Assembly: GCA_012845835.1 (NCBI GenBank)
Contig: JABAKD010000028.1
Coordinates: 13,610,648 to 13,674,647 of the forward strand
Length of the DNA stretch: 64,000 bases
DNA from: Undaria pinnatifida
Lineage: Eukaryota > Sar > Phaeophyceae > Laminariales > Alariaceae
Reading direction: 5' to 3'
The notes beneath the pieces were generated by a model. The model worked only from the letters and a program-made list of their open reading frames with translations, did no database searches and had not been told where the DNA came from. The first letter of the stretch is position 1, and each line of letters opens with the position of its first letter. The position numbers and the translations under genes are program-made. Shown here one piece after another: positions 2,073 through 40,186 of this stretch.

Positions 2073-2730
2073 CTAGCTCCACGTGCCCCCCCCTCCACCA
2101 CTCCACGCCGGTCCTCTGCTACCTCTTCCGGTCATACTGCCAGCACCTGCCGCCGCCGATGAACCTGTTTCGGTGTGCCACTCTCCCGGGGGTTGTTGTG
2201 ACCAAGATGTTCGAACCCTTGTTTCATCGCTGCGACTCGTGTCAGGCCGAATCTCCGAACTCCCCGGCGGGTTTACGCTTATGGCCGAACGTCGCGGCCC
2301 AGTAGCAAGATGGTGAGGTGGAGGCTCGGCTCTGGTGCCCACCACATTGTCGCTCCTACTGTGTCCAACGCCACTTACTCGCCACCTGCCTGATCCATTG
2401 TGGTCATAAGGATGAATAGATCGACGGATCTCCACGCGACCACTAGCTGGCGTAGGCGCTCGAGCGTATGGATGCGACAGGGTGTTCATTAGAACGCCCC
2501 CCTCGCTACTGTCGTGAACAGGACGCGATGAAGAGGCCCCCCTGTGTTGCACCTTGAAGGTGCGAGGCGGTGGTATGTCGGGCAGAGGCAAATCGCGGGG
2601 GCTGGCGTTGATGGCACCTGCGTCTAGCGAACGTCGCACACTATACGGTGTGGACTGCGGGCGAGAGTGGAGTGCTCGTTTCCCCGGGTAGAGGGGAACC
2701 TCAGGAGGTTGGTCGATGCGGTCGAACATC
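2073..2730 (-). CDS. BAH gene exon 11 (last): Pro/Ser/Arg-rich tail
   Basis: The acceptor is a clear ...cacgtgttcag before GATG. The single G completes the Lys codon begun by the AA at the end of exon 10, and the frame then continues MFDRIDQPPEVPLYPGK to a TAG stop at 2073. The tail of about 218 residues is rich in Pro, Ser and Arg with no recognisable domain, and it ends in a Gly run. Composition suggests intrinsic disorder. The plus-strand open frames overlapping it are antisense shadows. Confidence 0.75.
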
Positions 2731-2948
2731 CTGAACACGTGGCCAAAACCGATTAGGGATACGGCGCCTTACGGCGTTAGTGGGTGAGTACAAGCAGATA
2801 TAGCATTTCGAAGTGGTTTTGACTGCGATTAGTTGACAATGAAGCGTTTGTCGCGACAACGGTCGCGAGCTCTACATTAAACTTCCGCGAGCTGAATCAA
2901 CAGGGCAACAGAGTAGGAACTACTTGACGCATGAAAGAGGGTCCTCAC

Positions 2949-3010
2949 TTCAGGAAGGCCGCGAAAATTTGTTCTTGCTCTTGGAGACAGCTCTCCGCCC
3001 TCTCTAGTAG
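2949..3010 (-). CDS. BAH gene exon 10: short helical exon
   Basis: This 62-bp exon encodes LLERAESCLQEQEQIFAAFL plus two bases of the next codon. The donor is CTGAA|gtgagg and the acceptor is gtcatcag. The sequence is strongly heptad-like (Leu/Ile/Phe with Glu/Gln), so a short coiled coil or amphipathic helix is likely, continuing from exon 9 into exon 11. The intron before it carries a 23-base C run on the coding strand about 30 bases upstream of the acceptor. Confidence 0.72.
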
Positions 3011-3042
3011 CTGATGACATTCGCATCGGGCAGCGCGCGACA

Positions 3043-3065
3043 GGGGGGGGGGGGGGGGGGGGGGG
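3043..3065. repeat. Poly-G/poly-C run, 23 bp, inside intron 9
   Basis: An unbroken run of 23 G on the plus strand is C on the gene strand. It sits in intron 9, some 30 bases before the exon 10 acceptor, where a polypyrimidine tract is expected. Confidence 0.95.
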
Positions 3066-3431
3066 CTCAATTTGTGCATGGCCGTAGTTGTATGACCATA
3101 GACCTCGTATCCCTACTATGCCGGACGGATCACGTCGGGTGTTCACCATCTAGGCGAAGGAGGGGTGTGGGGGGCTAATGGAATAAGTATTCGAAATATG
3201 GAATATTTAGTAATCGTCCAGATATATCAGAAGCAAGCGTCGGCTGTTTGAATTCGATATCTGTTGAAATGTTCGTGATGGCACAGTGCCACTGCATTGT
3301 TACGGAACGCAGACAATAATAATGTCAATCCAATTAAGGCAAAAACATCAATATCGTCCCTTTTACGAAGTGCGCATGCCATATTACTTCGCAGAAACAA
3401 GGTTCAAACATCGGAACAGTCGGGTATTCAC

Positions 3432-3497
3432 CTGGTCTCTAGACATGGGCTTCCTGACGTGTGTAAGAATGAGGCCTTTCATGTACTCGAGTTGATC
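3432..3497 (-). CDS. BAH gene exon 9: 22-codon exon
   Basis: This 66-bp exon has a textbook acceptor (cacctgcag) and donor (GACCAG|gtgaat). It encodes DQLEYMKGLILTHVRKPMSR then DQ. Both ends fall between codons, matching exons 8 and 10. It is too short to be found as an open frame; the longer overlapping minus-strand frame starting at 3723 is in a different phase and lacks splice support. The peptide is helical in character. Confidence 0.72.
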
Positions 3498-3839
3498 CTG
3501 CAGGTGCAGGCGACCATTTCAAACGAAAGGGGACGTGAAAATCAAGTGTTAGAGACGGCCGCCCCTTTCGCTGAACCAGCCGCTCGCCCGGTAAACCATC
3601 GTGGTCGTAACGAATGGTCAGTGCATCAAACCTGGTCGTGACAAGTTGGCAGTGCATTAAAAGCACGAAGTATACACATGGTGCCAACGTGTTCACATGA
3701 GGTCGGGCTGTAGTCGAAAGCATCGTCAGTAGAGAACGACAAACAAGCTGTTCGATGCATTAGTGGAGTATAATACAGAAATATACGTAAGATTTAGCAG
3801 CAGCACAACATATACCCACTGTTTAGAAAATCTACATAC

Positions 3840-4240
3840 CTGGTCCATGTAAGCTTGCCCACGCTCTAGTAGTCTCCAGCAAGGGGCCATGGATCCAAAC
3901 ATATCGTCTCTCGATATCGGTTCTGATCCAAAGTTGGCGTCTCCTTGGCTGCAGTTCTCCACGCGGTTAACTCTGATATGAGGAGTATCGCCACCATTGA
4001 CTTGACCACCTCGAGGTCGGTCATCGACCCGCCGCGGGTGCGCATTATGCCGGGTCGAAGGAGGCATCGGTGGCCGCTCCCACCTCTGCTCTCGGTGGGC
4101 GTTCGGTAAACCGGGCGCCTCACTGTAAGAATTATATCGTGCGTCGTAACCTCCTGTCCTTTGTACTTCGATGATGCCGCCATGTCGGGGTGGAGTATGT
4201 GGCGGCATGGGCAGTATTCCGCTTTCTCGAGGCTCCGGCG
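3840..4240 (-). CDS. BAH gene exon 8
   Basis: The acceptor catcatttttag and the donor ATGGACCAG|gtatgtaga are both strong. The exon starts with two bases that complete the codon left open by exon 7 (phase 1) and ends between codons. It encodes about 133 residues, first Pro/His-rich (ILPMPPHTPPRHGGIIEVQR), then Arg-rich and polar, ending LLERGQAYMDQ. No known domain is seen; disorder is likely except for the last turn of helix. Confidence 0.77.
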
Positions 4241-4477
4241 CTAAAAATGATGGAAACGCAACCAAACGAACGTTGTTGTGGTCACGCTACACTTGCGTAC
4301 CTTCGGCATAGTTTAAGTTCACGGTTCTGCTCAATTACACCGGCTATTGACGGCCACGGAAACACATGTTAATGTGTCACGATTCAACGGCACCCCACTG
4401 GACCGCATCAAAATAAATACGGTGTGATTGTCTTGGTCAGCGAGGCTTTCCAGCCAACGCAAAATTATTGGGCTCAC

Positions 4478-4664
4478 CTATTGCTGGTACTGCCTGTCGA
4501 CGCATCTGCCTTGCCACCCAGGAAAGTCCTTCTTGTCCCATCGAGTTGATGTGCCGGGCAGCGACGTCCATGTCCGATGGTCGCGTAGGCTCTCCACCAC
4601 CGGACGCCGGTCGCCCCAAATCATCATTGGTGCCCCCCGCGTCGGCGTCGTCGCTGTCTTCCAC
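4478..4664 (-). CDS. BAH gene exon 7
   Basis: The acceptor cctgctgtacag precedes GTGGAAGAC, and the donor is GCAATAG|gtgagccc. Sixty-two codons plus one base encode an acidic start (VEDSDDADAGGTNDDLGRP) and then a helical stretch around NSMGQEGLSWVARQMRRQA. The single left-over base fits the two-base start of exon 8, which strongly supports the join. The acidic opening continues the Glu/Val end of exon 6. Confidence 0.77.
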
Positions 4665-5754: not shown

Positions 5755-5830
5755 TACGAGGTGTAGGGGAATCTATAGTCTCATTTTCGTTTTTTTCGAG
5801 TAGCCGCATCTTCGATACCTTCTTCTTCTG
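5755..5830 (+). repeat. Dispersed repeat with motif gccgcatcttcga
   Basis: The block running from acgaggtgtaggggaatc to agccgcatcttcgatacc matches the reverse complement of 61620-61690 (cgaggtttaggggaattc to agccgcatcttcgacccc). The core gccgcatcttcga also occurs at about 51331. Family and ends are unknown. Confidence 0.6.
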
Positions 5831-6114
5831 GATGTTTCGTTGACAACCTTTCATTGCCATGCGATCTGCATCTACGATTATTCAGGGAGGCCTAATGTAA
5901 TGGAGTGCGAAGAAGGATCGTTTTTAGATTCGACGTGAAACCATGTCATGGTTGGGGTGAAACCACCTTATAGTAGATGTCACGCTCACATGAAGGCCAT
6001 CATAGATCGGCGACATTGTAGGTGAAGATGAAGCAAGAAGCCCCTCATAGCACTACCCTTCCTTGCCTTGCCCTGTTTCTGTCTGCCATTTGAAGCGTTC
6101 TAGCTAGGGAAATG

Positions 6115-6156
6115 AAGTATATGATCTGAGCCTAATTAAGTATATGATCTGAGCCT
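6115..6156. repeat. Direct repeat, 19-bp core, two copies 23 bp apart
   Basis: The string aagtatatgatctgagcct occurs twice, separated by aatt. It is intronic. Confidence 0.95.
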
Positions 6157-6941: not shown

Positions 6942-7550
6942 CTCGACTACCTCAGCGTCCGGAGGAACGGGAGGAAGGGTTCTCGAGGCTTCTCTCTCTC
7001 TCATTGCGCACCTCCGCTGCTGGGCAAAGTAGTCGCTGGCAACGCCACCGCCCGCACTTTGTTTACTTCGCTTATTCGAATCTCGAGTCGTTCCACGCTC
7101 GGAATTGGAAGTGCGGTTGTCGCCATCAACCATAGATTTGCTTGTTGCGTGTTCAGACACAGCCAGGGAGTGGGGGGTGGGCATGGCCTCCGTTACGGGC
7201 GAAACCGTGTATTTGCCGGGGGGAGAAGGAGGCCGCTCTGTCGACCTATTGCTTTTGGGTACGCTGTCGACAATGGTGCCGTCTTTAGGTTCGGGTTTCT
7301 TCACAACTGGTTGGGCTGGTTTCGGGGCAGAGAGCCGAACAACTCGAGGTTTGGGTTTTGACGCTGCCTTGGTCGCATCAGCGGGAGTGTTTGCAGGGCT
7401 GACTCGGTGCGTTGCAGGCGAAACCGGCTTGGCAACCGTCTTGAGGTTTCTTTGTTGGGCGTTGCGTCGAGTCAATCCCTCGTCGCCGTGTAGGACTGCA
7501 TCGACCTCATGGACCGTGGAGATTTCTTCTTCCTTCCGAGCTTTTGCTGC
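6942..7550 (-). CDS. BAH gene exon 6: long disordered exon
   Basis: The acceptor is ccccttgtggtcacag and the proposed donor is GTCGAG|gtgagcc; both junctions are between codons (203 codons). The product begins AAKARKEEEISTVHEVDAVL and continues with Lys/Pro/Ser/Thr-rich sequence, including many SP and TP pairs, then a basic patch (NKRSKQSAGGG) and RTLPPVPPDAEVVE. It is very likely disordered and a candidate for phosphorylation. If the donor is not used, the frame runs on to a stop at 6846, giving a possible shorter product. The long plus-strand frames here (6924-7617) are antisense. Confidence 0.75.
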
Positions 7551-8417
7551 CTGTGACCACAAGGGGAGGCGGCAAAAACAACACCTGTCAACGGAATATA
7601 GAGATGCGTGCACCTAGACCACAGATTGATATGTCCATTCCCGGCGAAGCCAATATTCCGACTTGCCCCTACTAGCGGCCGTCATCTAGGATGTGGCCCA
7701 ATCAAAATTAACACAAAAACAAAACGAGACACTCGGACTTACCTCCAGCCCGTAAACAACGTCCGTGAGAGGCTCGGCAGCCGCGAGATACCTGTAGTAG
7801 AAGGACAACACCTGCGTTGTAGGTAATAGGCCAACGTTGCTAGGTTAACCATCGCGAAAATAAGCAGACTTGAGGAAAAAAACGCCAAAGGCAAAAAAAA
7901 AATCCCCAGGCTGCGGAGGACCATAACAACTATGGCCAACTGGCCTGGCCAAAATGAAAGGGAAACAAAACGTTGTGATACGCGATACAAGAGTTTATCG
8001 CGCCGACTGAACAACACACAGAGGTGACTTGGACCTCTAAAATTGACAGATGATAGTTTTGAACCATTTCGTCACACACACGACCCCCTTCGTCAAAACG
8101 GCAACCGGCTCGGGTGGCGGTCGTACAAAAAACATTTTTAGTTTAGATAATATTAACCTTCTGTTTATGCTATCGTTTAGCAAATCAGGGATCGAAACGT
8201 GTGCCAACATACGTGGCGACACAACACACGCCCACGACGGCGTTTGAGATATTTTCTTTCGTTGTTTACGGCCTCAACATGTACCGGGTGCGACACTACA
8301 TCGGCCAGGTTATAGCGGAAACGTCCGTTGTCCGTGCTTGCAGGTTAGTTCGATTCAGTACAATGCTTCACGTCACACGGCCTACCGCGGGTTCTACGAC
8401 TACGGCACTCAAAATAC
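7551..8417 (-). other. Intron 5 of the BAH gene
   Basis: Intron of 867 bp with no recognised repeat or nested gene. Small open frames on both strands lack support. Confidence 0.55.
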
Positions 8418-8567
8418 CTGAGCGGGAGTCTTGCCAGGAACCTGCTCGCTGACATCAGCTAGGTCGATGAAGTCTTCGCGGTCCATGTCCATTCCCGGTC
8501 GAGCCCAGCCATGCAACCGCCTGTTTGGGTCGTAGTCGTCTGCGAGAGCCTTCTCAAGGGTTCTCAC
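8418..8567 (-). CDS. BAH gene exon 5: 50-codon acidic exon
   Basis: This 150-bp exon lies between acceptor gttgtag and donor GCTCAG|gtattttg. The only open frame encodes VRTLEKALADDYDPNRRLHG, then WARPGMDMDREDFIDLADVS and EQVPGKTPAQ. It is a whole number of codons and both neighbours join in phase. It begins with a helix continuing exon 4 and ends in an Asp/Glu-rich segment. No named domain is recognised. Confidence 0.77.
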
Positions 8568-8845: not shown

Positions 8846-9087
8846 CTATGGCAGGCACGGTCGATCGTCGCTTCCTGTGACATAGCAACCTGGACTTGTC
8901 GGCATGTACAACCAAACGTGGATATTTTCGTAGACAGCCATCAGGTACATAGTCTATAGGTACAGCAGTGCTAGGAATGTAGTTTTCGGCATCACTGCTG
9001 CCTCAGATGTGCTGGCCTCCACCAAGTCATCATGGCCATTAAGTCCAAGTACGGAGCAGTAAGCGTACATGTTTGTCGCACCGAGCT

Positions 9088-9253
9088 ATCCCCCGAGAAC
9101 ACCACCAAGATATGCAGGCCACAATCAGCGCGGGACCGCCACGAAGGCCGGCCAAAACATTTGGCCAGCCATCCCCCGAGAGCACCACCAAGATATGTAG
9201 GCCACAATCAGCGCGGGACCGCCACGAAGGCCGGCCAAAACATTTGGCCAGCC
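9088..9253. repeat. Tandem repeat, 83 bp x 2
   Basis: Units 9088-9170 and 9171-9253 are nearly identical; they start atcccccgagarcaccacca and end aaaacatttggccagcc. The few differences indicate recent duplication. Intronic. Confidence 0.95.
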
Positions 9254-9904
9254 AAAACACAGCAGCAGTACGAGTGCTCGTTGTTCTGTTCGAGTACCAT
9301 ACCTCGAAGTATGACACGAGCAAATAACACATCCGTGCAGATAATGCATCTTCCAACATGCGTGAACAAAATTGCTTCCCACCTCACATATCGAATACAA
9401 AATACGTAGACTATATACTACAGAGTTCCACGTCAGGTCGGGGCTAATTCGATATCCCCAAGGCGTCGCGATTCGGAAAGGAGATACGCACGCGTTCCAA
9501 TGATATGTACAGGTTTGAGCTACAGTACTAATTTTGATACTGTTGCTTGTTTTTTATACCTGTTATGAGGTCCGATGATACATGTTCCAGTTTGCGTTGG
9601 GCGTGTTGGGGTGGATGAGGTTTGATACCCTGCTGCTGCGCACCAGCCACATGAACATGCACATGCCATTGGAACGTGTCCCTCTTTTGGACCTGCGACC
9701 CCCCTAGGGGACCAAATCAACCCCGTCCCGAAGGAACCTCGTATGATATATGATATGTACTGCGTGATAGCCGATTGGTCGTTTACTAATAGCTCCATAA
9801 CATAAGCCCTTTGTCGTTGGGGAGGAGTCGGTCCAAATTCTTAATAACAGTAACAATGGCTCAATAACGAGAAAACACATACGCACGAAGGCAGGCCGCC
9901 CTAC

Positions 9905-10033
9905 CTGTTCTAGCGTCCAAGGTTCAATGCTCTCAGGCGATCCCGGGTCGTCCTTGAGCATTTGCAGGGCCGGCTCGAAGTTGTCCAGAACACACCTCGC
10001 CTTCACTAATGCAGAAAGAGCCTGCTCCTCACT
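9905..10033 (-). CDS. BAH gene exon 4: helical exon
   Basis: The donor GAACAG|gtagggcgg is strong; the acceptor gaattcaacag is acceptable. Forty-three codons encode SEEQALSALVKARCVLDNFE, then PALQMLKDDPGSPESIEPWT and LEQ. The first part has helical periodicity. Both ends are between codons. The start is the least certain part, since the frame stays open a little upstream to a TAA. Confidence 0.65.
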
Positions 10034-10470: not shown

Positions 10471-10764
10471 CTGAACTCTTTGGATGGCAGACTTTGGAAT
10501 GTCGGTTTTTGCCATTTCCGAACACGCAACTCTGACCAGCCCACACGTCTCACGCCCAGAAGATATCGCCCACACCGCAAAGCTGCTCGCAATGCCCGTG
10601 TTCTCTTCTTTGTCGACGCCACTGTTGTTTTTGCCACCGAAACGAACGTGAACTGCAACGCCAGGACTGGCCTGCTTGGCCTCGACAACCCCCTTGGCTG
10701 CGTGAAGGTAACCAGCCAACATGCCGCGAGATTGGGAGTCCCAGTCTTGGATGCTTCGCCAAAC
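10471..10764 (-). CDS. BAH gene exon 3
   Basis: The acceptor gcaattgtctttag precedes GTTTGGCGAAGC; the donor is GTTCAG|gttagc. The 98 codons read VWRSIQDWDSQSRGMLAGYL, continue through a Gly/Asn-rich turn (HVRFGGKNNSGVDKEENTG) and a hydrophobic stretch (IASSFAVWAISSGRETCGLV), and end SAIQRVQ. It looks like a compact folded piece, but I do not recognise the family. The 184-residue plus-strand frame over the same bases is treated as antisense. Joining to exon 2 across 19.7 kb is in phase but unproven. Confidence 0.65.
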
Positions 10765-12194: not shown

Positions 12195-13400
12195 AGGTGA
12201 TATCGTCTTTTTACATTTCGAGCCATCCATGCAGCATTTACATTTCATTTCTATGGTCTTCAGGTTCCAATGAACGCCCCCTCCCACATCACCCCCATCA
12301 ATCGCCCCCGCCATGGTCTGTTCGCATTACGCGTGCCGTAAGCACCTATTCAAATGTATGCGACCTATCCCTCCATCAACCGCCCCCCTCCCCTCACCTA
12401 TTGATGTGTACGCAGGATATTTTATGCGCGCACCGTCTGCATGATCGTCTCCCAACCTGTGCTAACCGAAGTAACATATGCCTCTACATATGCCTAGTGG
12501 AGTAACGTGGTACTCGTATAACCTCATACGATTACCCGAAAGCCCCACTCGTATAGATAGCATCAAAACCATACCTGGTAGACATCATATCTGGCATTTT
12601 TAGTCGCAATGGTATATGTAGTCACTGTGAAATATTCGTCATGGTGATATATGGTTGCACACGTAGATTGGAATATTGTATCGTACGGACGACTGCTCGG
12701 TCCATGTATAATAACACACCACGAAGCCATAAAATATAGTATTTGCTATTTTCCACCTCCGTTCCCCGCCGTCATCGCCCCCCCCCCCTGTGACACAAAC
12801 GCACACAACCCCCCTCCTTCCTCACCACCTGCACCATCGCCAAATCTTAGCATCACGCGTATATGAAGTTCCTACCGTGTATACCTCGACTTTTATGCGA
12901 TCTAAAGCGGTTTAAAATTCCCCTTCCCCCTTCCACTCCCCCGCCTTTTGAACACTTCCCCCCCCTCCCCTCGCCGGTTGTACCATTAACAGGATATTCA
13001 TTATATAATGATGTGTTCCTCCCACAACCGTCAGATGTGTGGTTTATAGCTGCTGCACAGATTCAGTTCCCCCCCCCCCCCCCGCCCCCGCCCCCCCCGC
13101 CTCCTTAAAAAATCTCCGCCCTCCCCTCAGCGGTTGTACGACTTACAAGATAAACTTGATGAATTCATGCCTTTCCTTCCAAAGCTATCAGGTTTTGTCC
13201 CCTTCAGAAACAGGGGTTATAGTTTCGGCGAACAGATTGATTAACATCACCCTGTTGAACCTCGTACAAGTTACATTAATGTTCGAAAGGGAGTCGCCGA
13301 CCTATATCCTTAATGAGTATCATACACCCAGCTTGCTAGTATTAGTTTCGACGAAATCCTCAATCTCGCAGCTGGGGTGTATTTTTATTGTTATAATATA
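12195..13400 (+). repeat. Family A element, copy 2 (near full length)
   Basis: This copy is about 1.2 kb long. It starts gatatcgtctttttac with the ccatccatgcagc block, passes several C-rich tracts, and contains the unit that begins ggttgtac, includes an accgtcag/agctatcagg block and ends at a 'tatag' stretch. That unit occurs twice (about 12977-13065 and 13128-13230), showing an internal duplication. It ends with cttgctag...tcgacgaaatcctc and cagctggggtgtattttt. No protein is encoded. Two long C-runs lie at 12778-12789 and 13069-13101. Confidence 0.75.
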
Positions 13401-15290: not shown

Positions 15291-15499
15291 CCGATTTACC
15301 CAAGAAATTCCAGTTCCGAGAATCCCATACAGACACGGAAAATACTCCTTACCATATTCCTGTCCCCTAAAATAGAAAAATATTCGATTCATATATATTT
15401 TTTTTTCATTTTTTTTTTCATTTTTTTTCTTTGTTTGTATTTTTTTTTTTGTTTCCAAGAACCGTCGATTTTTTTGGATTTTAGCTTCCACGCACAAAT

Positions 15500-15910
15500 T
15501 GCCCGCCTATCCGCCCCCCCCCCCAGTCCCCCCCTCCCCCACCCCCTCCAACCCCGCTCGCTTTTGATGAAAACCAGGCCCCCACGTCCTTCAGAACTCC
15601 GGCCTCCCCTCACCGGTTATTCGACTTACAGGATTCACTTGATAAACGGATACATTTCTCTCCACAGCTGTCAGAATTCATCCCCCTCAGAAACGGGTCT
15701 TACAGTTTCCGCGCGCAGACTGACTAACATCACCCTGATGACCCTGATAGCTACACTGTAGTTGCAAGGGGAGTCGCCGACCTATATCCTTAATGAGGAC
15801 ACACAACCCGTAATACGCGCGATCGGAGTACCACACACAGCTTGCAAAGATGAGTTTCGACAAAATATTCGATCTCACAGCTGGAGTGTGTTTTCATTTT
15901 TTTTAATATT
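15500..15910 (+). repeat. Family A element, copy 3 (left-truncated)
   Basis: This copy starts in a C-rich tract and carries the block ggttattcgacttacaggat, the cagctgtcag block, ggggagtcgccgacctatat and the right end cacagctggagtgtgttttc followed by a T run. An A/T-rich low-complexity stretch (15391-15470) precedes it. Confidence 0.85.
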
Positions 15911-16121
15911 GTCTAGTCTAAAGGTATATTTGTTACGCAAAATCTGGTCGACCTCTGAAGCGCGGAATCGAACTTCAATAACAAACGTAGTGAGTACCTG
16001 GTGGTAGTTCATTAATAATCCATGTTGAAATCTCGGCATTACTTTACATACTGTACGTGTAGACCATGCGTAAGTGTAGTACCGTTTACTGCACGCTCTT
16101 TTGAATACTGGATTAAACAAA

Positions 16122-17894: not shown

Positions 17895-18860
17895 ACCAGT
17901 GCGTATGGCCGAAGAGAGTATGAGCAGTGGTGCTGTACGCCGAATTACTGCAATAACGGAGTTGAATACTCCGAGCACTATTGACACTGCCCGCTGCAGT
18001 CCTCGCAGTATGAAATACTGACATAAAGCAACACCTCACCTTGCAGTACGAAATGGTGAAATACTGCGAGTGAGTATCACGCGGGCAACGAAGACATTTC
18101 GTAGGGTCATCGTCCATCAACAGGTTTCTATTTCAAGTATTGTAATTGAATGCCTATTGTTGTGGTCCCTAAATGAAGACATTTTCCTCCGAGCAATATC
18201 ATTTGCCCGGAATAGGCTTGCACCTGACTCTCTTGTCCACGCGATTTCCGATATTTTTAGGTATTGTTATGTAAAATTATTACTTGCACCTAGGACAAGA
18301 ACAAGTTACTAGTACAGTATCTTGATATTTCACGACCAAATATATCGTAAGGTCAGCAGTCTGCTGCGATCGAAATCCCGATTTTACTTTCCCTGTGACA
18401 GAATGTTACAATATCAACAGTGGTCGTGTCAGTTGTGGTCGACAATCGCGCTCAGTAGCAGCTAAATAAATACAGACTGGTTCAAGTCAAGGCCACGGGG
18501 GTACCCAATCGTCGCCCGGTCTCCTTTTTTCCGGTGACTCAAATACCTAGATGTTTTTTATCGGAACAGTGCAAAACATGCCTAGGATAACACGCTGCGT
18601 TTGGATGTTGGGCTGGTTCGTTACTTAGGGTCAGGCAACACCACACTCAAGAGTCCTTCATCCACAGGTAGATGTTGCGAGTCTCTTCACTTTGGTTTCG
18701 CTCTGGCCCTCAGCAGAGCTCCACACCTCGACTTTGAGGCGCCGCGGTGATCGAAATTTGTGGTACACAAAACAAGACAAGAAGCGATTTCCAACTACGG
18801 ATGAACGTGTGCACTTCCATAGCGGGCCGCTACAGCTCCCCACAGCAACCAATGCCCGCG

Positions 18861-19130
18861 AAATTAAGCAACGCTCCAGGAGGGGGTTATGACGACGTCG
18901 GGTGCGCCAGGCAGCAGTCGCAGGCAGCCAGAAGCGACTCACAGGACGTTTTCGTGTTTTCGAACTTTCGAGCCAGCAACACCAAAAGCTACCCGAAATT
19001 GAGGAACGCTCCTGGAGGGGTTAATGACGACGTCCGGTGCGCCAGGCAGCAGTCGCAGGCAGCCAGAAGCGACTCACAAGACGTTTTCGTGTTTACGAAC
19101 TTTCGAGCCAGCAACACCAAAAGCTCCCAG
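18861..19130 (+). repeat. Tandem repeat, 135 bp x 2, in frame
   Basis: Units 18861-18995 and 18996-19130 differ at about a dozen positions. The period is 45 codons, and one plus-strand frame (18747-19139) stays open through both, giving the repeated peptides DDVGCARQQSQAARSDSQDV and DDVRCARQQSQAARSDSQDV. The minus strand is also open across part of it. I do not recognise the sequence; it may be an exon fragment or repeat DNA. Confidence 0.9.
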
Positions 19131-22904: not shown

Positions 22905-23580
22905 CTTCACAGGTTTTGGTGGTATTGGCAGAGTTGTATAGGTAAAGTTGTATTCGTACCCTTCATGGGTAGTAGAGTTGCGTATGGAAGAGTTGTACAC
23001 CCCTTATGGGGAACGACCTATCAACTTTCTGGGACGTGGTTGCTGTACTGCACGTTGTCAGATTGTCCGGAAAACGTGGCAATCGTTGAAATTTGTATGG
23101 TGTTTTTTGGTTCGATTGCACTTTTATCGCTGCATGCCCTCGAGTTGTTACTCTGACAGAACTCCAGACAGCAGACGAGTTCCTCTGTGCTCGCGATTAT
23201 CGAGTGCCTCGTACGGTGCAGGCAGCACTCCAGACAACAACCGCTGTAGTCAGTAGCGCTTAGTTGGTTAGTTGCGGGAACGGGGAGGACTCTATAGGCG
23301 GTAATTGGGTGGACACCAGCAGTCATGCTGTGAGTTTCCACGTTGGTTGAATTTCACTTGTGCGCCTTCTTCGTCCCGGGTGTCTTAGCTGCAGACTCCT
23401 CGCGTCCCAAACCGAACGTTGATTTCATGACGTTTTTTCGCGTGTTCCTAGGGCTTTAGCACCTCTGTGTGACCACTATTAGAGTAATATTTACCAGTGT
23501 ATATACTCGTATGAGAACAATATCAACAACAAACAACGAAAACAACCACAATCAACATGCTTTTATAAAATTAATTTGAC
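22905..23580 (+). repeat. Family B element, copy 1
   Basis: Shares with 40565-41322 and 53815-54612 the ordered blocks gagttgtacaccccttatgg, ggaacgacc, tcactgcatgcc-type block, tctgacagaactccagacag, gtacggtgcaggcagc, cacttgtgcgccttcttcgt and agcacctctgtgtgaccac, ending in an AAC-rich tail (23519-23550). More diverged than the other two copies. Confidence 0.75.
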
Positions 23581-30491: not shown

Positions 30492-32054
30492 CATTTTGGC
30501 GCCAGCCCCGGTGTGTGGTTTTTTCCTCTCCTCGTCCGATAGCAAGTCGGGTATGTCAGTCTGGTAGTCCTTTCCCACCGAAGTACGCAGGGGGGGGTAG
30601 TCTGACCGATTTGCTGCTTGTGCTGTCTTTGTTGCACCACTCCGCTTCCTCTTTGTTGCTGTTGAAAGCTGAGGCGAGGTCTTGCCAGTGTCAACCACCG
30701 AAGCAGTGCGAGGTAGTGCTGGGATAGACTTCGGCCTCAACCCCATCGACATGCGTGTCCTAACGGGACGCGTTACTTTAACCTGCACGGGCGCCTTCGC
30801 GCTAGCAGGAGAAGGAGCCTCACCTAATTGAGATGCCAAAGGCTCCTCTGCAATGGGTGGCATTGCCAAGCGTCGAGGGCGAGGCGAAAGCGGCCCTCGA
30901 CGCTTGTTGGACGACACACGTCGGCGTCTCTGCAACGTGGGGGCCGACGTTGATGGAGAGGGGTAGATGTTTGATTGGGAGCACTCCTCCACAGTAGATT
31001 CGGAGCAATTTATCTCTTGTGTTTCTGAATAATCGTCCGTTTTTGATTGAAAGGAATCGACCAACTTTGCCTCGGAGCACACCTGCACATGCGCTGCGGA
31101 GGGGTCATCCACCCTTCTTTTGGAGGAATCCTCGGCTTTTGCTTGGGGGCACTCTTCCATTTGTGTTCCGCAAGAACCGCCCGCTTGTGTTTCGGACAAA
31201 ATCTCCGCATCGGCATCAGCTGCCAGCACGGCATCAGAACCCGGCGATTGCTGGGACTTGCGCTGACGAGCCGACTTCCTGGGCTTGAAGCTTTTGCTGA
31301 CGGAGAGGTTGGCTCTTGAATTTTTCGGTGAATCGGGGTCCATGCCATCGTCGTCATCGTCCTCCCTCTCGTTCCATTCGCCGTCCTCAGAGTTGGGGGG
31401 CTCTTCAGTCCCGCTGTCGTCAGACATTGCGATCTTCATTATTGGTGGACTTACAGGTCTCTCAGTTTTGTTCAAGGATGGCTTCACGATGTCGATCCCA
31501 AGCACTGCCTCACGAGCACTCTCTCGCCCACTCCTTCGCTGGAAAACTCCCCGCTTAGGCAGCAACCAACCGTTGCTTTTCACGATTGGTTTCCCGCTCT
31601 TAGCTGCTTCGGTTTCCTGGTCCGCCCTTGAGGCGAGGGCGACCGCATTCGCTTGTCGGACTCTAGCACGCTTCAGGATGGGATCAGTGCCTTCCAGGGG
31701 ATAGAAATCGCCGGACTTGTCACAAAATGCGTGTGTAAGCAGTGGCCCCATCTTGTCCTTTCTCCCTGGAGATACTGCTGTCGTCGTGCTGGCGCTCACA
31801 CATAACATGATGGGCTTCACGATAGCACGCACCTCGAGATCCCTCACTTTGTTGGTGAGGAAAACCTCGTCAGATTCGTTTTCGACTTTGTTTGATGATG
31901 TCTTTCTCCCGGTCGCCTCATGGTCGACCGCACAGGCTTGACGGCTCTTTCTTAGCCGCCGCAAAGTGTTTGCAGGAAGGTCTGAAGCCTGTACCAGCCA
32001 GCGTGCCCTAAACTTGAACACGCCCGTGAAGGTATCTTCCCACATTGACAACAC
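30492..32054 (-). CDS. BAH gene exon 2: second part of BAH domain plus disordered region
   Basis: The acceptor gtctgtggtacag precedes GTGTTGTCAATG; the frame is open for 521 codons to the proposed donor AAAATG|gtgggtgat. It starts VLSMWEDTFTGVFKFRARWL, the W-E-D and R-W core of BAH domains, and continues to NESDEVFLTNKVRDLEVRAI, the N-E-x-F-L and I-x-x-K-C/P end of the fold. After the domain come an Asp/Glu-rich segment (EWNEREDDDDDGMDPD, about residues 285-312), a Cys/Ser/Glu-rich polar stretch with loose repeats, and basic nuclear-localisation-like patches (RRRRVSSNKRRGPLSPRPRR). If the donor is wrong, the frame runs on to a stop at 30399. Confidence 0.85.
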
Positions 32055-32461
32055 CTGTACCACAGACCATATGCCGGGGATCAGATAAAAACAAACACGG
32101 CGGTGATGCACTTTTGGTCGATGAAGGGATTACGCGTGATTCTTGGTTCATCATGTTTCGACACCGTAAGGCAACCATCACCTGTGGGCGACCCAGAAAT
32201 GTACGACGAGCACGCCATCATGGTTCAAAGAAGCAGTCAATAAAAAGCACCGGCGGGTATTATTTTCGAGGCAAGCGTAGTGTGTGGAAAGCGCGCTAAT
32301 AAACCAAATGTTGTGTGGGTTTCGACCACACTTTAGAAGAGTGTTATGATACAGCCCTTACCAGGTGCAATGGATCTCACCAGCGCTTATTCATAGGGAA
32401 ACGAGACAACAACAAGTACACGCAGCAGAGCACAAGGTGATGTTATACCTGGCATAAATAT

Positions 32462-32585
32462 ATTGAGGGCACACCCAGTAATACGCGTGATCGGAGTATT
32501 ACACACAACTTGCAATCAAGGTCAGTTTCGACAAAATCTTCGATCTCACAGTTGGTGTGATGATATTTTTACAATATATATAGAC
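32462..32585 (+). repeat. Family A right-end fragment, copy 4
   Basis: cacccagtaatacgcgtgat, ggagtattacacacaacttg, cttcgatctcacagttggtg. It faces the minus-oriented copy at 32700, making an inverted pair about 115 bp apart. Confidence 0.75.
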
Positions 32586-32699
32586 TAATGGCATTGGCGC
32601 GAGATGGAAGCGGAAAACCACCTAGCACCAGGTTTGAACATGAATATTACTGTGAATGTCACTAGTAACATGCGTGCTACGATAGAGGTACGATCATGA

Positions 32700-33190
32700 A
32701 AATAAAATTACACTCCACCTGCGAGATCGCAGATTGTGTCGAAACTCATCTTTGCAAGCTGTTTGTGATACTCCGATCGCGCGTATTACGGGTTGTGTGT
32801 CCTCGTTGAGGATATAGGTCGGCGACTCCCATTGCAACTACAGTGTAGCTTTCAGGGTCAACAGGGTGATGTTAGTCAGTCTGTGCGCGGAAACTATAAA
32901 ACCCGTTTTTGAGGGGGACAAAATCTGACAGCTGTGGAAGGAAATGGATCAGTTAATCAAGTGAATCCTGTGGGTCGAATAACCCGTGAGGGGAGGGAGG
33001 AGTTTTCAAGCACGTAGGGGCCTGGGTTTGATCAAGAGGGAGCGGGGGGGGGGGGGGGCGGGGGGGCGGGTCGGCCGGGGCAGCTCAATTTGTGCGTGGA
33101 AACTATAAATCCTTTAAGCGGATAAATCTGACGGTTTTGGAAAGAATGCACCAGTTTAGCATGGTAAAATATATCCTGTACGAGAGGAAT
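32700..33190 (-). repeat. Family A element, copy 5
   Basis: Starts with the diagnostic end (ttacactccacctgcgagat), continues ggtcggcgactcccattg, gtgcgcggaaactataaaac and a G-rich tract (33046-33068), and then shows the second, internally duplicated unit (gtgcgtggaaactataaatc, ctgacggttttgg). Confidence 0.85.
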
Positions 33191-33984
33191 TAAGGTATAT
33201 CTTTCCTGGGTAAAAAGCATTGTGAGTGATGGCACTCTTTAACCCTATATCTTAACAATTATCTTCCTGTTTCTGCATGATTACTTGTTGTTTACCTTGG
33301 TTATGAGAGGCTTCAACCCCTTGAACGAGAATATTTTTTGCCAAAGATCCGGGCGTCAAACTTGTTAGGTTAGTAGGTCTTCTCTAGCTTTTTTAGATGA
33401 GGTGTAGAGCTCTTCAAATGAACATGAGGAGCCTCAGCAATGAATTATTAATCTTACATTCCAGCACCTCTATCGTAGCATTCGTCGCACACTAACTAAA
33501 ACACACCACAACACACTAACTACAACACACTACACTAACTGCACTGCTACTGCATGTAGACTAAACTTTACGACGCTATACACGTATGGCATCACCAGCA
33601 TTTCCGTTTTGTCGCCGCCTGCTGGCTCCTTCCCGGACGTGAAGTCTGTACTTTAAGCTACCACGGGCTGGATTGATGTAGGCTGTAGGGAGTCGACGTC
33701 GGCAATATTCGTCATCGTGAACTACCGTGTGGTGGATATAATTGGGTTTAAATTCATCTAATAGGTATAATACCAGTCGTGATTAGCTTCGATGAACTGG
33801 AAGAATGCTGGGCGCGTATAGGAATTGTAGTACGGTAGAGGAAATGGATCGAGAAGAAAAAAAGGGTGTCTTTAAAGACAAGATTTTAACTGTCCATCCT
33901 ACGATACCTGGTGTGATCAACGACAGCGCGGTGCAGCCAGAGCCCGTGCCGATTCCTTATTCCATGAAAATACAATCTACCCAA

Positions 33985-34026
33985 TCTACGATAACATATA
34001 CCAAATCTACGATAACATATACCAAA
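33985..34026. repeat. Tandem repeat, 21 bp x 2
   Basis: tctacgataacatataccaa plus a, twice without mismatch. Confidence 0.95.
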
Positions 34027-34084
34027 TCTCGGTATTTTTTTGACACATGTAGACAACTCATGTATATACCAGGTACTGTAAAAA

Positions 34085-34390
34085 AGTAAAACACTGCAGC
34101 TGTAAGATCGAAGATCAGATTTGGTCGAAACTCATCTTCGCAAGACGTGTGTGATACTGCGATCGCGTATTTCACTGGGTGTATTCTCATCAAGGACATA
34201 ATAGGTCGGCGACTCCCCTAAGAACTGCAGCAGTGTAGCTTGTATCAGGGTCAACAGGATGACGTTGATCAATCTGCGCGCAGAAACTATAAAAAACGTT
34301 TTTCAGGGGGACCGATCTGACAGCCGTGGAATGCACCAGTTCATCATGTATAACCTGTAGTTGTATGACCGGTGGGGCGAGGGGGGCGGG
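34085..34390 (-). repeat. Family A element, copy 6 (diverged)
   Basis: aaaacactgcagctgtaaga, ggtcgaaactcatcttcgca, ggtcggcgactcccctaaga, aactataaaaaacgtttttc. It abuts the octamer taccaggt at 34067. Confidence 0.8.
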
Positions 34391-35059
34391 TTTATATGCT
34401 ATACGAAGTGCGTGACAGACGGGCGCTCGCCATTGGGTTCCAACAGAGGTAGTTGAACTGCAAGGAAAAGTCACGCTATAGCATGGGCCCAGAAAGAGCC
34501 AGTGAGTCAGAGACCGAAGCTGACACACTCAATATTTCTGATAATCGTGCATGTACGATGAACATCGGTTCAATGCCGCGGGCACCGCCGACGGAACACG
34601 AGGGTAAGATTGTGTTTATGCTGATTAGATACTTGCACTGGCTGCCGGGTAAGAAGTGGCTGGGCAACGCGCAAAATTAAAATCGCCATCTCATCCGACA
34701 ATTGGGAGAGCAAGCGTTCAAGAACAACCACTAAAAACGACATAAATATTGCGAAGGTAAAATGAACCAAACAGGCGCCTACGCTCTGGAGCAAATACCC
34801 ACCACCAGCTGGCGGTTCTACTTGTACGAGTTACTACAGCTGTGTTCTTTCATTATTTAGCCATCATGTTTGCACGAGTAGCTTGCGTGTATACAGATGT
34901 TTTCGTACCATATATCAAGAGTATTCGGTACCTCGTTTTTCACGTGGTAGGTACCAACACTATCGCGCGCCTAACAGCCTTTAAATGTCTGGCACTGACA
35001 CTGCTGTTGTCGTGAGTAGTACTACTTCTTGCGGAGAAATCGCTTACACGTGATATTGA

Positions 35060-35162
35060 AAAAATTAAATTACACTCCAGCTGTGAGATCGAATATTTTG
35101 TCGAAACTCATCTTTGGGAGCTGTGTGTGATACTCCGATCGCGCGTATTACGGGTTGTGTGT
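35060..35162 (-). repeat. Family A right-end fragment, copy 7
   Basis: attacactccagctgtgaga to gcgcgtattacgggttgtgt, then abruptly unrelated sequence. Confidence 0.8.
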
Positions 35163-36279
35163 GATATCTGCGTTGATTCAGATTCCTGAAGAGGTAAGCG
35201 GTTCTGATACAGTCGTACCGTGCAGTGTTTCGCGTGTAGTGAGACCCCCTCCACGAACCGGCGAGGGGGCTGTCACACACTTTTTCGGCCGTCATCAGGG
35301 TATCATATCGTATCAAAGCATTCATCTATCCGGCTCCCCGGTCTTCCATCGCTTGCCGGGTAAAATAGTTCTCTCTGGCACCCACGGATTCCGAAATCCT
35401 GTCTTACTAAAGTTGCTTTACATAACACGTGTACTACTGCTGTAGTATTACCTGGTATTAATATATATGCACTTTGCATTGTTGCACTGCCATATCGGAC
35501 GACGGCTTCGAAAAAGTATGCTGCGTTTCGAGGACGAATGGCTCGCCATCGTTGCGCATAATAAAATTAAATGGAGAGGTAGTCCTTTCAGCAATAAACC
35601 ATGTAGAGGGAATCGTTTCCGTACCCCGTGCAGTTTACTAGGCAAGACCTGTAGTCTGTAGGCAATACGTCGGACGAATAAGTACGGAGCGGGAGTCCGA
35701 CATCACAACGATGTATTGCGATGGCCCCGATAGTTATATATGACAAGTATTAGTCTAGTCTAATGTGTGCCATTACATATTATCATTTCCAGCCTTGTCG
35801 CAGGTATTTGGGTTGTGGGGTGATCGTATAAATCCTTGTACCACCTCTCTACCGGTACCTCGTGCAAAAGCGATGGGTAAACGATACCCTTCCTGGTATG
35901 CTTCTCGCGATATCGAATATGTGACTGCCGATGCCAAGACTACTTAAAACATTTGTAAGAAGTGTTTATTGCTAAGATGTTGATGACCCGTGTACAGATA
36001 GATTGGGTCCACCGAGGATGATGGAGCAATACCCTTGTTAATAGTACCAGTAAATCAAATGACGTCATTTCATTGCACTTTTACTGCATTCTGTACTAGT
36101 ATGATATAGAATATCGAAAAGGGGTTGTGGAAACTGGGGAAACCGCTACAATCAAAGGGCCGCGATCACGCCACATAGAGACACCCCACAAATACTACTA
36201 TTATAGCGGTATTAGAGCCCCAGCAACAAGCCGCGCTGCCATCGCGTTTTCATGGCCCGGAAAAATTCATAGTGCGTTC

Positions 36280-36870
36280 AAGCATTTTTTTGCTCCCCCG
36301 CATTTCCCTCCCGACCGGCCTTATTCCGATATATTTTCCCTCTTCTTCGTGTTGCTTTTGTCCGTGAATCATCAGTTATCTTCCTGTTATTTTGTCCGCG
36401 CAACAGCTGTTACCTTGTCCGTGTTTTGTCACGTGCAACAGGCATCTAATGTTCTTCAGCGCGTGTGTTTTTCTGCAGCCTTTCCTTTCCGATCTTCTTG
36501 CATTACATTCTTCAGAACACCTGTCGTTTGTTTTGCTTTGCTCGCTTCTACTTTTTTCTTTTCCTTTTTCTCCTTTCTTACGGTCTGGCTTGTTTTGGAG
36601 TGTCATACATTTTTGTTTAAAAAAAAGGTTATATATCACTATTGTGTTGTGGTGTTCTTGCGCCCGGTACGCTAGCATTTCACTTGTTCTACCTACCTTG
36701 ATGAATTGCAACTGTTTGGCCTACTCTGTTTCACAGTCTGTGGCCACATAATTTGTATACCTCTAAGAATGAATACTCATCATGGACGCTCTGGGTGTAC
36801 TCGCACCGATGTCTCGATGACGTTGGGTGGAAAACTGTTTAATGCAAAGACAGCACACACGGGCGAAAGC
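36280..36870 (+). repeat. Pyrimidine-rich family G, copy 2
   Basis: Partner of 21470-22310 (shared strings given there). The open frames of up to 182 codons across it are T/C-driven and not supported as genes. Confidence 0.6.
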
Positions 36871-36924
36871 TTCGAAAGCCAGTCAATACCTACCAGGTAT
36901 TTGACGGCAGCCAGGTATCAAAGT

Positions 36925-36985
36925 CGCATGCAAAGACGAGTTTCGATCAAGGCATTTTCGATATCCAGCTACAAGCATATTTTGC
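36925..36985 (+). repeat. Family A right-end fragment, diverged
   Basis: gcatgcaaagacgagtttcg, atcaaggcattttcgatatc and cagctac follow the family A right end (cttgcaaagatgagtttcga, cttcgatctcacagctgg). It lies 30 bp after an octamer taccaggt. Confidence 0.5.
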
Positions 36986-37182
36986 ATTTGACTTCACGTA
37001 AAATCATGACGTATTACCCGTTGACTTGGACTATAGTAACGATTAGGAAGCATCAGAGATTTCCCGAAACCCGTCCCAACACCTATACCGCGTTCCAAGT
37101 ACAGCAGTAGGTTTTACCTTGCATCCCGGGCTCCACCGTTCGTCATCGGGAAATCCGGACAAAGGTGTAAGTAGGCAATGTG

Positions 37183-37465
37183 GTTTATTTTTTTTCAGCA
37201 CACTTTCACTTTCCAGCTTCTGGACAAGCCGTGGTCACAGGTGTCATCCCTTCTCCTCCCCGGTTCTTGCCTTCAATTTTTATCGCGCATAGGGTTCAGC
37301 ATTCCCACTGCTCGTCGATTGTACATCGAATGTTGCTAACTCACGCTCTCGCGCTTTCCGCAAGTCAATTTGTCCACAAGAAAAAGTCCCAACGAGTTTA
37401 TACGAGTATGCACTCGGCGGGGCTCGAACTCACGAAACTGACCTATACCAGGCTCGAGGATATAC
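37183..37465 (-). mobile_element. tRNA-derived SINE, copy 1
   Basis: On the minus strand: a B-box-like gagttcgagccccgccgagt, the body block acttgcggaaagcgcgagag and cgtgagttagcaacat, then cacctgtgaccacggcttgt, ccagaagctgg and an A-rich tail. The A box end is truncated or diverged. Same family as 55.6, 56.5 and 61.2 kb. It lies in intron 1, in the same orientation as the gene. Confidence 0.85.
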
Positions 37466-37559
37466 CTCGGCGGCTTCATCCACGAAGGCGCTGGCCTCAA
37501 GGTTGAGATCAAACAACGAGTACGACTCATGGGGGCATGAGGGAATCCTACAACGGGTT

Positions 37560-38190
37560 TGGTCCAGGTCTACACGATATGACGACCGCCCGGCCCAGCC
37601 TGATCGTCCGCCTGCTGAAGGCCAGGGTGATGGAGACCCTGCTGTGCGGGTGTGTGACGTGGACCTCTTGAAGCGACTCACAATGACGCGCTCCGCAAGG
37701 CCCACCTCAGAGTGCCCCGGCCAATCCTTAGCTTCCACCATCGTGCCTACCACACGAATATCTCGTACGCCAAGGCCCTCAAGGAGCCAAAATGCGAGGG
37801 CATCGAAAAGACCATGCGGAAACGGCGGGTCATTTTTGCTGGGGCAATGGCACAGCGAAACAGGGGGCGATTACCCAGTCGAACGAGTTTTGCGCAGATA
37901 GCCGGCGGAGAAAACGTTGGACCATGTGGGACTCCGATAACTGATTGGGAAACCCCCAGAGACAACCACGCCGTTTTTCCATCCATCGAACGCTCTACGG
38001 AAGATTCCCCACGGCAGTTTGGAATTGAAGCCGTACTGTGGGTTCATGTAGCAAAGAAGGCCGTCAACGGGTATCATACCGGGGGATCCTCGAAGCAACC
38101 CAAAGGTCCATGGGCAAGTGGCATGTACAAGAGAAAAATAAGAGCTCGGAGAGCCGCGCAGCCCACGTGCATGACGCCCAACGGAAAGTA
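37560..38190 (+). pseudogene. LINE-type reverse transcriptase C-terminal remnant
   Basis: The plus frame from 37712 is open to 38191 and reads SYAKALKEPKCEGIEKTMRK, RRVIFAGAMAQRNRGRLPSR and later FGIEAVLWVHVAKKA. The motifs KRRxxFAG, R-G-R-L-P and F-G-I-E-x-V-L-W are typical of the post-RT region of non-LTR elements in algae and oomycetes. Upstream, in another frame, the conserved MET-LL-G-C-V-T-W-T type segment is present (37630-37665), so at least one frameshift separates the parts. No RT catalytic YxDD motif is visible, so this is a truncated, dead copy. Confidence 0.72.
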
Positions 38191-38864
38191 AGGCGGTAGG
38201 GGAAGGGGGGAAAATACTGTTGCAGAAATCAAGGAGATGGCAGACAGTGCTGCAAGGAACCAGGCCGACTGGTAACTAGAACTTGTCTACGCCGCCTGCA
38301 ACTACCTATTTTGTTTTCGTGTTTTCGTTCTTTGGATTGCCTGCTCCTTTCCAGCCGGGGCCGATTCGCGTGATTTTTGCTCATCCGGTTCTCCCTTTCC
38401 CGTTTATCCCTTTCTGCCCTTTCTTCCTACGTTCGATTGTGCTCGCTTTAGCTTTGCCCTTTTGGTTTTCCTTTTGGGTAACCTTGGGGTTTAGGGAGGC
38501 CACGGTGTCTCCATGACACTGCCGTCGAAAATAGAGTAAGTAGAGGACAGACATGGGTAGCACTGCTCTTAACCCTCTAGTAGTTGTAGGTCCATTCGGG
38601 GAACAGATTGGGTGCTGACCCGACGCCGGTTGGATGGCGTCACCTGCGTCGTTGCTGTCGTCTTGCGTGTTATTTTTTAGGCTTCGTTTTTGTATTCGGT
38701 ACGGGGGCGACGATGACTCGAAGGTATTGGCGCCAATACTGTCGTCAGACACAGTGCGCAGGTGATACACCTTGATACAGCTTGATGGACAATGCGGCAA
38801 TGCACCTACTCCCACAGCAGTAGGGTAATTTGCAACACGATATGGTTGCATTCCCCAACGTTGG

Positions 38865-39310
38865 TTGAATCGCTTCACCTGCCTGCAACTACGTTTTTGC
38901 TATATTCGTAGGTTGTGGCTGCCAGCTGTGCTTCATTTTCATTTTAGGCGTACGGTCCTATTTCCCTCAGACTTTCCAATTGTTTTTTCCTTTCTTTTTT
39001 CTTTTTTCTTACTCATCTTTTATTTTTTTCTCCCCTTTCACTGCGAGAGTCTGGTGTGCTGGCTTGCATGTTTTTGCGTTTCGCCGGCGGGCTCTTTGCG
39101 GATGGCATTGAATGGCCAACTCACCCTGCTGTATTTGCATTGAGCATTTCTGTCTCGTAGGTTTCGGTTCGTGAACACAGAGCTCGTCTCTCCACGAGGC
39201 ACAGACGCTTGTTGTGCTCGATGTAGATGGGTAAAAAGATCCGTTTAATACGAAAAACACACGCTGGTTGTGTCGGAAACAGATGGGTGTAAGTATCAGT
39301 TTAGTGAAAA
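38865..39310 (+). repeat. Family G-like, copy 3, with tandem end
   Basis: The T/C-rich body is followed by ctcaccctgctgtatttgca, similar to 21.96 kb. The end unit (gacgcttgttgtgctcgatg, gatccgtttaa, gaaaaacacac) occurs again in tandem as gctggttgtgtcgg, tcagtttagtg, aaagaacacac. A shorter related T/C-rich stretch lies at 38283-38510. Confidence 0.5.
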
Positions 39311-39967
39311 GAACACACATACAGCAGTCATAGATGCATACAAAAATATAGGATACACAGAACATAGAACACGACTACGAGAGCTCTGCGGCCATTCGTG
39401 GTGCGGAATGGAGAAAATTAAAGCGCATGCCCTTCTTGTCATACGCAGTTGATCCCTCCTCCGCGCATCCTATTTTCAGCCGAGCTGAAGAAGCTCGATT
39501 GCGGCAAGGGAGGGCGCGAAGCATGCAGCGCGAGCCTATAGTTCGGTTGTCTCAGCTAGCGCGCCCCGTCAGGCACGGAGCCAACCCAATTATTTATCAA
39601 CAACCCAAAAATACGTGCGGATTACCTGCACATCACAGGTTTCAGCCATGCTGTTGTCCTTGATGAGCAACAACATTTTACGAAAGTCCCTAAATTGTTG
39701 CGATTCGTTTCATTTGATACTTTGTTGAGGGTTTTTAGGACAGAATCGCATGGCAACAGCAAGCAAAATACCCGACCATGCAAACAGAGGCACCTTCAAA
39801 GCGTGCAGAGTGCACGTTTCTACGCTCGGTGGACCAAAACCGCCGTGTTACAGAAGAAGCAATGACGGTGCTGGTATATCGTACATTGATATTATGTACG
39901 TCGGGCTGTAGTAGTTGTTGCGCCCTGAATTATTAGCGGCAGTCAGAAATGTATGGCCCAAACGTAC

Positions 39968-40186
39968 CTGAACTAAGGCGGGATGTTGCTGAGTAGGTTC
40001 CTGCTGCTGCTTCTTTTCCGTGACCTCCACCACATCGTTAACGTTCACTTGCTCGCTCGCACCCGCAAGCTCGACAGCCCCGTAGTGCCTTTGACGTCCA
40101 AATGGAGACCGGCTGGGCTTGCTCTTGGGGGCAGGCACCGGTGGTCCCACCCATCTCGAGCGGGGGCCTCGAGCTGTGGAGTTCAT
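39968..40186 (-). CDS. BAH gene exon 1: start codon and first part of BAH domain
   Basis: The ATG at 40186 opens MNSTARGPRSRWVGPPVPAP, a basic Pro-rich N-terminus, then HYGAVELAGASEQVNVNDVV, which matches the opening of BAH domains (aromatic, beta strand, then V-x-D-x-V). It closes PTQQHPALVQ at the donor GTTCAG|gtacgttt, between codons. The next exon continues with the W-E-D core. An acceptor-like tttttag/gattttag sits just before the ATG (40192), so an upstream non-coding exon is possible. Confidence 0.8.

What the first reader, a model, noticed from the sequence alone, without database searches (positions are those of the whole stretch)
2073..40186. A 38-kb BAH-domain gene whose introns house most of the local transposons
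Eleven exons can be joined by eye with continuous phase, including two junctions that split codons in matching ways, which is unlikely by chance. The BAH domain is recognised from family knowledge. The rest of the roughly 1445-residue product has no domain I can name, so it may be a lineage-specific chromatin protein. Introns 1 and 2 make up about 28 kb and are nearly all repeat debris, including LINE, SINE and MITE copies.
Basis: partly seen in the sequence, partly recalled or inferred. Interest (0 to 1): 0.8.

Follow-up and report, generated by a model that had tools for sequence, protein, structure and literature searches.

The report
Brown-algal HDAC corepressor-like scaffold gene
A seaweed (wakame) gene spread over 38 kb encodes what looks like a gene-silencing scaffold protein, laid out like animal MTA/RERE corepressors but with an extra SIN3-like module, in a lineage reported to have lost two common silencing systems.

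Summary
The gene is real. Brown-algal homologues bridge both giant introns. The window is Undaria pinnatifida: a public Undaria gene model is identical over 325 + 479 residues but skips 270 residues and lacks the last 395. ELM2 is cut by the 19.7-kb intron 2 and passes Pfam's cut-off only when exons 2 and 3 are joined, which ties the two sides together. Best reading: a class I HDAC corepressor scaffold that works like MTA1/RERE/MIDEAS; HDAC binding is inferred, not shown. The family was found only in brown algae, within the sensitivity of the searches, and has several copies in Ectocarpus. Its SANT keeps the inositol-phosphate-pocket aromatics but not the two lysines. 'Introns house most of the local transposons' is not supported: in-window repeats cover 13.8% of introns against 29.6% of flanks.

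The parts
39968..40186 (-). exon 1, aa 1-73 (ATG; first part of BAH)
   Evidence: junction to exon 2 continuous in 10 of 13 homologues
32055..39967 (-). intron 1, 7,913 bp, lies inside the BAH-coding region
   Evidence: in-window repeats 1,300 bp
30492..32054 (-). exon 2, aa 74-594 (rest of BAH, acidic/basic linker, ELM2 motif)
   Evidence: also seen with a few substitutions in P0032
10765..30491 (-). intron 2, 19,727 bp, cuts the ELM2 domain
   Evidence: in-window repeats 3,032 bp
10471..10764 (-). exon 3, aa 595-692 (end of ELM2); absent from my first model
   Evidence: present in P0001, P0002, P0003; ELM2 27.6 bits with it, 17.4 without
9905..10033 (-). exon 4, aa 693-735
   Evidence: junctions continuous in 10 and 13 of 13
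8418..8567 (-). exon 5, aa 736-785 (SANT)
   Evidence: junctions continuous in 13 of 13
7743..7811 (-). exon 6, aa 786-808 (end of SANT, FYYRYLA)
   Evidence: junctions continuous in 13 of 13
6942..7550 (-). exon 7, aa 809-1011 (linker)
   Evidence: next junction continuous in 11 of 13, weak identity in some
4478..4664 (-). exon 8, aa 1012-1073 plus one base of the next codon
   Evidence: same donor in the public model P0001
3840..4240 (-). exon 9, to aa 1207 (linker and start of the C-terminal helical block)
   Evidence: junction 8/9 continuous in only 2 of 13
3432..3497 (-). exon 10, aa 1208-1229 (helical block)
   Evidence: junctions continuous in 13 and 11 of 13
2949..3010 (-). exon 11, aa 1230-1249 plus two bases (helical block)
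   Evidence: next junction continuous in 13 of 13
2073..2730 (-). exon 12 with TAG stop, to aa 1468
   Evidence: C-terminal residues alignable in several homologues
31821..32054 (-). BAH-like domain, second part (aa 74-151); first part at 39968-40051
   Evidence: Pfam BAH aa 46-151, 14.0 bits against a cut-off of 30.8; folds
30492..30578 (-). ELM2 domain, first part (aa 566-594); second part at 10693-10764
   Evidence: Pfam ELM2 27.6 bits against a cut-off of 21.7
2706..3902 (-). span that codes, in exons 9-12, the conserved PAH-like four-helix block (about aa 1187-1258)

Best explanation
The gene encodes a nuclear corepressor scaffold. Shown by sequence: one 12-exon gene of 1468 residues with an ELM2 domain; supported by profile or fold: a BAH-like domain before it, a SANT domain after it, and a conserved four-helix C-terminal block of PAH-like fold. 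Inferred: ELM2-SANT wraps and activates a class I histone deacetylase as in MTA1, RCOR, MIER, RERE and MIDEAS; the BAH-like domain touches the nucleosome; the PAH-like bundle docks amphipathic helices of repressors, so the protein brings deacetylation to chosen genes. Both lysines of the inositol-phosphate pocket appear to be replaced, so activation by inositol phosphate is predicted to be weak or absent.
Confidence: 0.65

Rival explanations
1. A chromatin protein with the BAH-ELM2-SANT layout that does not bind an HDAC: the domains have been kept for another scaffold role (for example a histone or nucleosome reader).
For: Pocket lysines replaced in 14 of 14 rows; SANT with a conserved insertion and ELM2 followed by an extra beta-rich insertion; BAH and SANT below Pfam cut-offs.
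Against: ELM2 motif and hydrophobic/aromatic SANT helix 3 are the most conserved parts of the family; the review says ELM2 is required for HDAC1/2 recruitment in MTA, RCOR, MIER and RERE (PMC4244562, passage).
Confidence: 0.28
2. Two neighbouring genes joined by eye: a BAH gene (exons 1-2) and a SANT gene (exons 3-12).
For: A 19.7-kb intron full of repeats separates the two; the public model P0001 is spliced differently.
Against: ELM2 needs both sides (18.9 bits for exon 2 alone, 27.6 joined); the junction is continuous in 10 of 13 homologues; even P0001 joins exon 2 to exon 3, from an inner donor.
Confidence: 0.02
3. A decaying or transposon-captured pseudogene.
For: Repeat-rich introns; fast-evolving linkers.
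Against: No stop or frameshift in 1468 codons, GT-AG at 11 of 11 introns; 0 of 4,404 exon bases lie in in-window repeats; domain blocks conserved in Laminariales and Ectocarpales, ELM2-SANT also in Ascophyllum.
Confidence: 0.02

Closest known systems
MTA1-3 (NuRD) and RERE/atrophin corepressors of animals
   Same: Order BAH, ELM2, SANT (MTA1: PMC4244562, passages; RERE order recalled); SANT profile match to MTA1/MTA3/RCOR1.
   Different: No GATA zinc finger: no CxxC in 1468 residues. Long linkers between the domains; insertions after ELM2 and inside SANT; pocket lysines replaced; a C-terminal PAH-like block that I do not know from MTA or RERE (recalled).
MIDEAS (MiDAC), RCOR (CoREST), MIER: ELM2-SANT corepressors
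   Different: A BAH-like domain in front (not a feature of these as I recall them) and the C-terminal block.
Fungal Snt2/SntB
   Same: BAH and SANT, in Magnaporthe Snt2 also ELM2 (PMC7160234, passages); partner of the deacetylase RpdA (PMC9508808, title and start of abstract in the listing).
   Different: Snt2/SntB carries PHD fingers; none here (no CxxC; no PHD in Pfam at E <= 10).
SIN3 PAH domains
   Same: Four-helix fold of the C-terminal block; 9 of the first 11 VIA rows for P0029 are SIN3 PAH.
   Different: Single block, no detectable PAH sequence family match, no SIN3 HDAC-interacting region in the Pfam scan. The genome has separate canonical PAH matches at 6 places on 3 contigs.

Membership tests
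ELM2-SANT corepressors (broad class) | ELM2 domain | tested here: met
   27.6 bits, cut-off 21.7
ELM2-SANT corepressors (broad class) | SANT domain after ELM2 | tested here: met
   Below Pfam cut-off, but profile E 6.4e-5 against MTA/RCOR SANT, 0 of 200 shuffles as high; fold hits ISWI, MIDEAS, CoREST3
ELM2-SANT corepressors (broad class) | inositol-phosphate pocket: two tyrosines and two lysines | tested here: not met
   By alignment by eye: Tyr in 12 of 14 at each tyrosine position (Phe in the rest), but acidic in 14 of 14 and Leu in 14 of 14 where the lysines stand; residue numbers of MTA1 recalled
ELM2-SANT corepressors (broad class) | binds class I HDAC | not testable with these tools
   needs an experiment
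MTA / RERE | BAH domain in front of ELM2 | tested here: inconclusive
   Pfam 14.0 bits against 30.8; best member E 1.1e-4, 22.5 bits; fold matches Orc1/Sir3/DNMT1 on a low-confidence part of the model
MTA / RERE | GATA zinc finger after SANT | tested here: not met
   no CxxC anywhere; none in Pfam
SIN3 | PAH domain(s) | tested here: inconclusive
   fold yes, sequence weak or absent
SIN3 | HDAC-interacting region of SIN3 | tested here: not met
   not among the Pfam matches at E <= 10
Snt2/SntB | PHD fingers | tested here: not met
   no CxxC; none in Pfam at E <= 10

The most novel reading that the evidence does not exclude
Brown algae carry a single-chain corepressor that joins an MTA/RERE-type BAH-ELM2-SANT module to a SIN3-type PAH docking module, is no longer governed by inositol phosphate, and multiplied in a lineage that lost PRC2 and DNA methylation, supplying part of its gene silencing.
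Probability: 0.3. Interest if true: 0.75.

Novelty: new variant of a known kind. Interest (0 to 1): 0.5.

Why it matters
[quoted passage not shown] Ectocarpus is reported to lack PRC1 and PRC2 (PMC7784034, abstract and passages), and brown algae to lack PRC2 subunits and DNA methyltransferases other than DNMT2 (PMC13076208, section 6). Which repressors they use instead is open; PMC13076208 puts forward DOT1/H3K79 methylation, and its main text has no occurrence of ELM2, BAH, deacetylase, NuRD, HDAC, SANT or SIN3 (supplements not read). A BAH-ELM2-SANT family with a PAH-like block is a concrete deacetylase-based candidate that can be tested. The 12-exon model also shows where a public Undaria gene model is incomplete.

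Tried and rejected
Two-gene reading rejected (shared ELM2; junctions). My own first 11-exon model was replaced once homologues showed exon 3. Zinc fingers: no CxxC. phmmer of residues 1-913 of the 11-exon model against the PDB found nothing at E <= 1; the profile of the full-length alignment A1 found one low-complexity hit. The profile of the C-terminal block found six PDB sequences, E 0.13 to 0.82, none of them a PAH. Besides MIDEAS the core profile also gave two hits at E 1.7-1.8 that I take for chance. Rfam: no match in the window at gathering thresholds. ELM2 search of the own genome found nothing, as expected for a domain cut by an intron, and its 14 control genomes rang nowhere. The VIA list for P0029 shows no MTA1 row among the 50 printed, which is no evidence of absence. 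A bacterial promoter/terminator scan upstream of exon 1 says nothing for a eukaryote. Literature: 'ELM2' with 'brown alga' held by 0 papers; the listings showed no title or abstract start on a brown-algal ELM2 protein.
Full report
WHAT IS THERE. On the minus strand between 40186 and 2073 a chain of 12 exons reads through 1468 codons without a stop, with GT-AG at every intron. Exons: 40186-39968, 32054-30492, 10764-10471, 10033-9905, 8567-8418, 7811-7743, 7550-6942, 4664-4478, 4240-3840, 3497-3432, 3010-2949, 2730-2076, with TAG to 2073. Introns 1 and 2 are 7,913 and 19,727 bp; all introns together 33,707 bp. My first model had 11 exons and missed 10764-10471; the homologues revealed it.

WHOSE GENE. 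A gene model P0001, labelled jgi/Undpi1 g12762 in EukProt (I read Undpi as Undaria pinnatifida), is identical to the window model over residues 1-325 and, from residue 595 on, over 479 residues. The published Undaria assembly has 511 Mb of contigs and 50.14% GC (PMC7058681, passages); the window's own genome has 511,146,479 bases in 68 contigs. P0001 leaves out residues 325-594, including the ELM2 motif, and after exon 8 takes another acceptor and frame, so it lacks residues 1074-1468. Whether the skipping is a real isoform is untested.

CONTINUITY. Three protein searches gave 29, 28 and 19 proteins. All hits with a species label are brown algae: Undaria, Laminaria digitata, Scytosiphon promiscuus, several Ectocarpus, Ascophyllum nodosum. 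P0009 and P0018 (EukProt) and P0032 (ENA) have no species label; P0032 is exon 2 of this gene with a few substitutions, running on into the intron. These searches need shared exact five-residue words, and only the nearly 8,000 candidates sharing most words were scored, so distant relatives elsewhere are not excluded. In the alignment with 13 homologues, counting five residues either side of each junction without a gap: exon 1/2 in 10 of 13, 2/3 in 10, 3/4 in 10, 4/5, 5/6 and 6/7 in 13, 7/8 in 11 (identities 0 to 8 of 10), 8/9 in 2, 9/10 in 13, 10/11 in 11, 11/12 in 13. These homologues are predictions too; the three E. siliculosus ones are named 'expressed unknown protein' by the source.

DOMAINS. 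Pfam ELM2: 17.4 bits without exon 3, 18.9 for exon 2 alone, 27.6 with exon 3, cut-off 21.7. So the 19.7-kb intron cuts this domain and the domain ties the two sides together. BAH spans exons 1 and 2 (aa 46-151) with 14.0 bits against a cut-off of 30.8; neither exon alone matched it at E <= 1; 7 of 14 members match at E <= 1, best 1.1e-4. SANT is below Pfam's cut-off (12 bits against 24.4; not listed for the 12-exon model; 3 of 14 members), but the family's SANT block matches MTA1/MTA3/RCOR1 SANT with E 6.4e-5 over 24 columns, a score not reached in 200 column shuffles, and the ELM2-SANT core profile finds MIDEAS first in the PDB, E 0.092.

HOW IT MOST LIKELY WORKS. ELM2-SANT of MTA1 recruits HDAC1 and activates it with inositol phosphate, through a pocket to which MTA1 gives two lysines and two tyrosines; these residues are said to be conserved in RCOR, MIER and RERE (PMC4244562, section 7 and passages). 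In this family the tyrosine positions are Tyr in 12 of 14 rows each (Phe in the rest), while the positions that I align by eye with MTA1 K305 and K331 are acidic and Leu in 14 of 14 (MTA1 sequence). The residue numbers are recalled, checked only for number and kind against the review. Arg 765 (13 of 14) and Arg 792 (14 of 14) lie close by and could compensate. Prediction: an HDAC scaffold with altered regulation, with the PAH-like module for targeting.

FAMILY HISTORY. A tree of 30 rows puts the window with P0001 and Laminaria's two copies. Ectocarpus rows fall into four clades and Scytosiphon has three rows; the tool warns of long branches. Undaria's own paralogues could not be counted because the genome search was busy. 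Pfam PAH matches at six places on contigs C28, C20 and C34, so SIN3-like proteins probably exist separately.

CONTEXT. Ectocarpus lacks PRC1, PRC2 and H3K27me3 (PMC7784034, abstract and passages) and has predicted deacetylases (section 5). Brown algae lack PRC2 subunits and DNA methyltransferases other than DNMT2 (PMC13076208, section 6); a discussion passage says that such loss would have required other repressive systems. That the present family is one of them is inference.

TRANSPOSONS. In-window repeats cover 13.8% of introns and 29.6% outside the gene. The commonest family, pieces of about 100-450 bp, lies in about 12 places, six of them in introns 1 and 2. An integrase frame lies outside the gene at 48889-49863 (Pfam rve, E 3.4e-4, below the cut-off). 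By this measure the introns carry repeats but do not house most of the local ones. The genome is reported as 54% repeats.

VERDICT. A real gene with a corrected model and an identifiable domain order; a new variant of a known kind; the mechanism is inferred.

Noticed in passing
48889-49863 (+): Open frame of 324 residues with a weak integrase match (rve, E 3.4e-4, 21.3 bits against a cut-off of 32.6); probably a Ty3/gypsy-type retrotransposon (class recalled).
   Followed up: partly
257-557, 13069-13399, 15449-15915, 32461-32577, 32693-33158, 34072-34390, 35052-35162, 42564-42758, 52095-52355, 57351-57779, 58607-59029, 59383-59545: One interspersed repeat family in about 12 places, both orientations, six in introns 1 and 2 and six outside the gene; class not determined.
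   Followed up: partly
40563-41313 and 53829-54602: A stretch of about 770 bp present twice at 86% identity outside the gene; a related piece lies at 22985-23476 in intron 2.
   Followed up: no
9084-9254, 18859-19125, 56277-56357: Tandem arrays: period 83 (2.1 copies) and period 135 (2.0 copies) inside introns, and a TGT microsatellite of 27 units outside the gene.
   Followed up: no
58001-60000: Strong GC skew of 0.395 over 2 kb, where several repeat copies cluster.
   Followed up: no
30492-32054 (exon 2): The public Undaria gene model splices from residue 324 straight to exon 3, skipping the ELM2 motif; either a mis-annotation or an isoform.
   Followed up: partly
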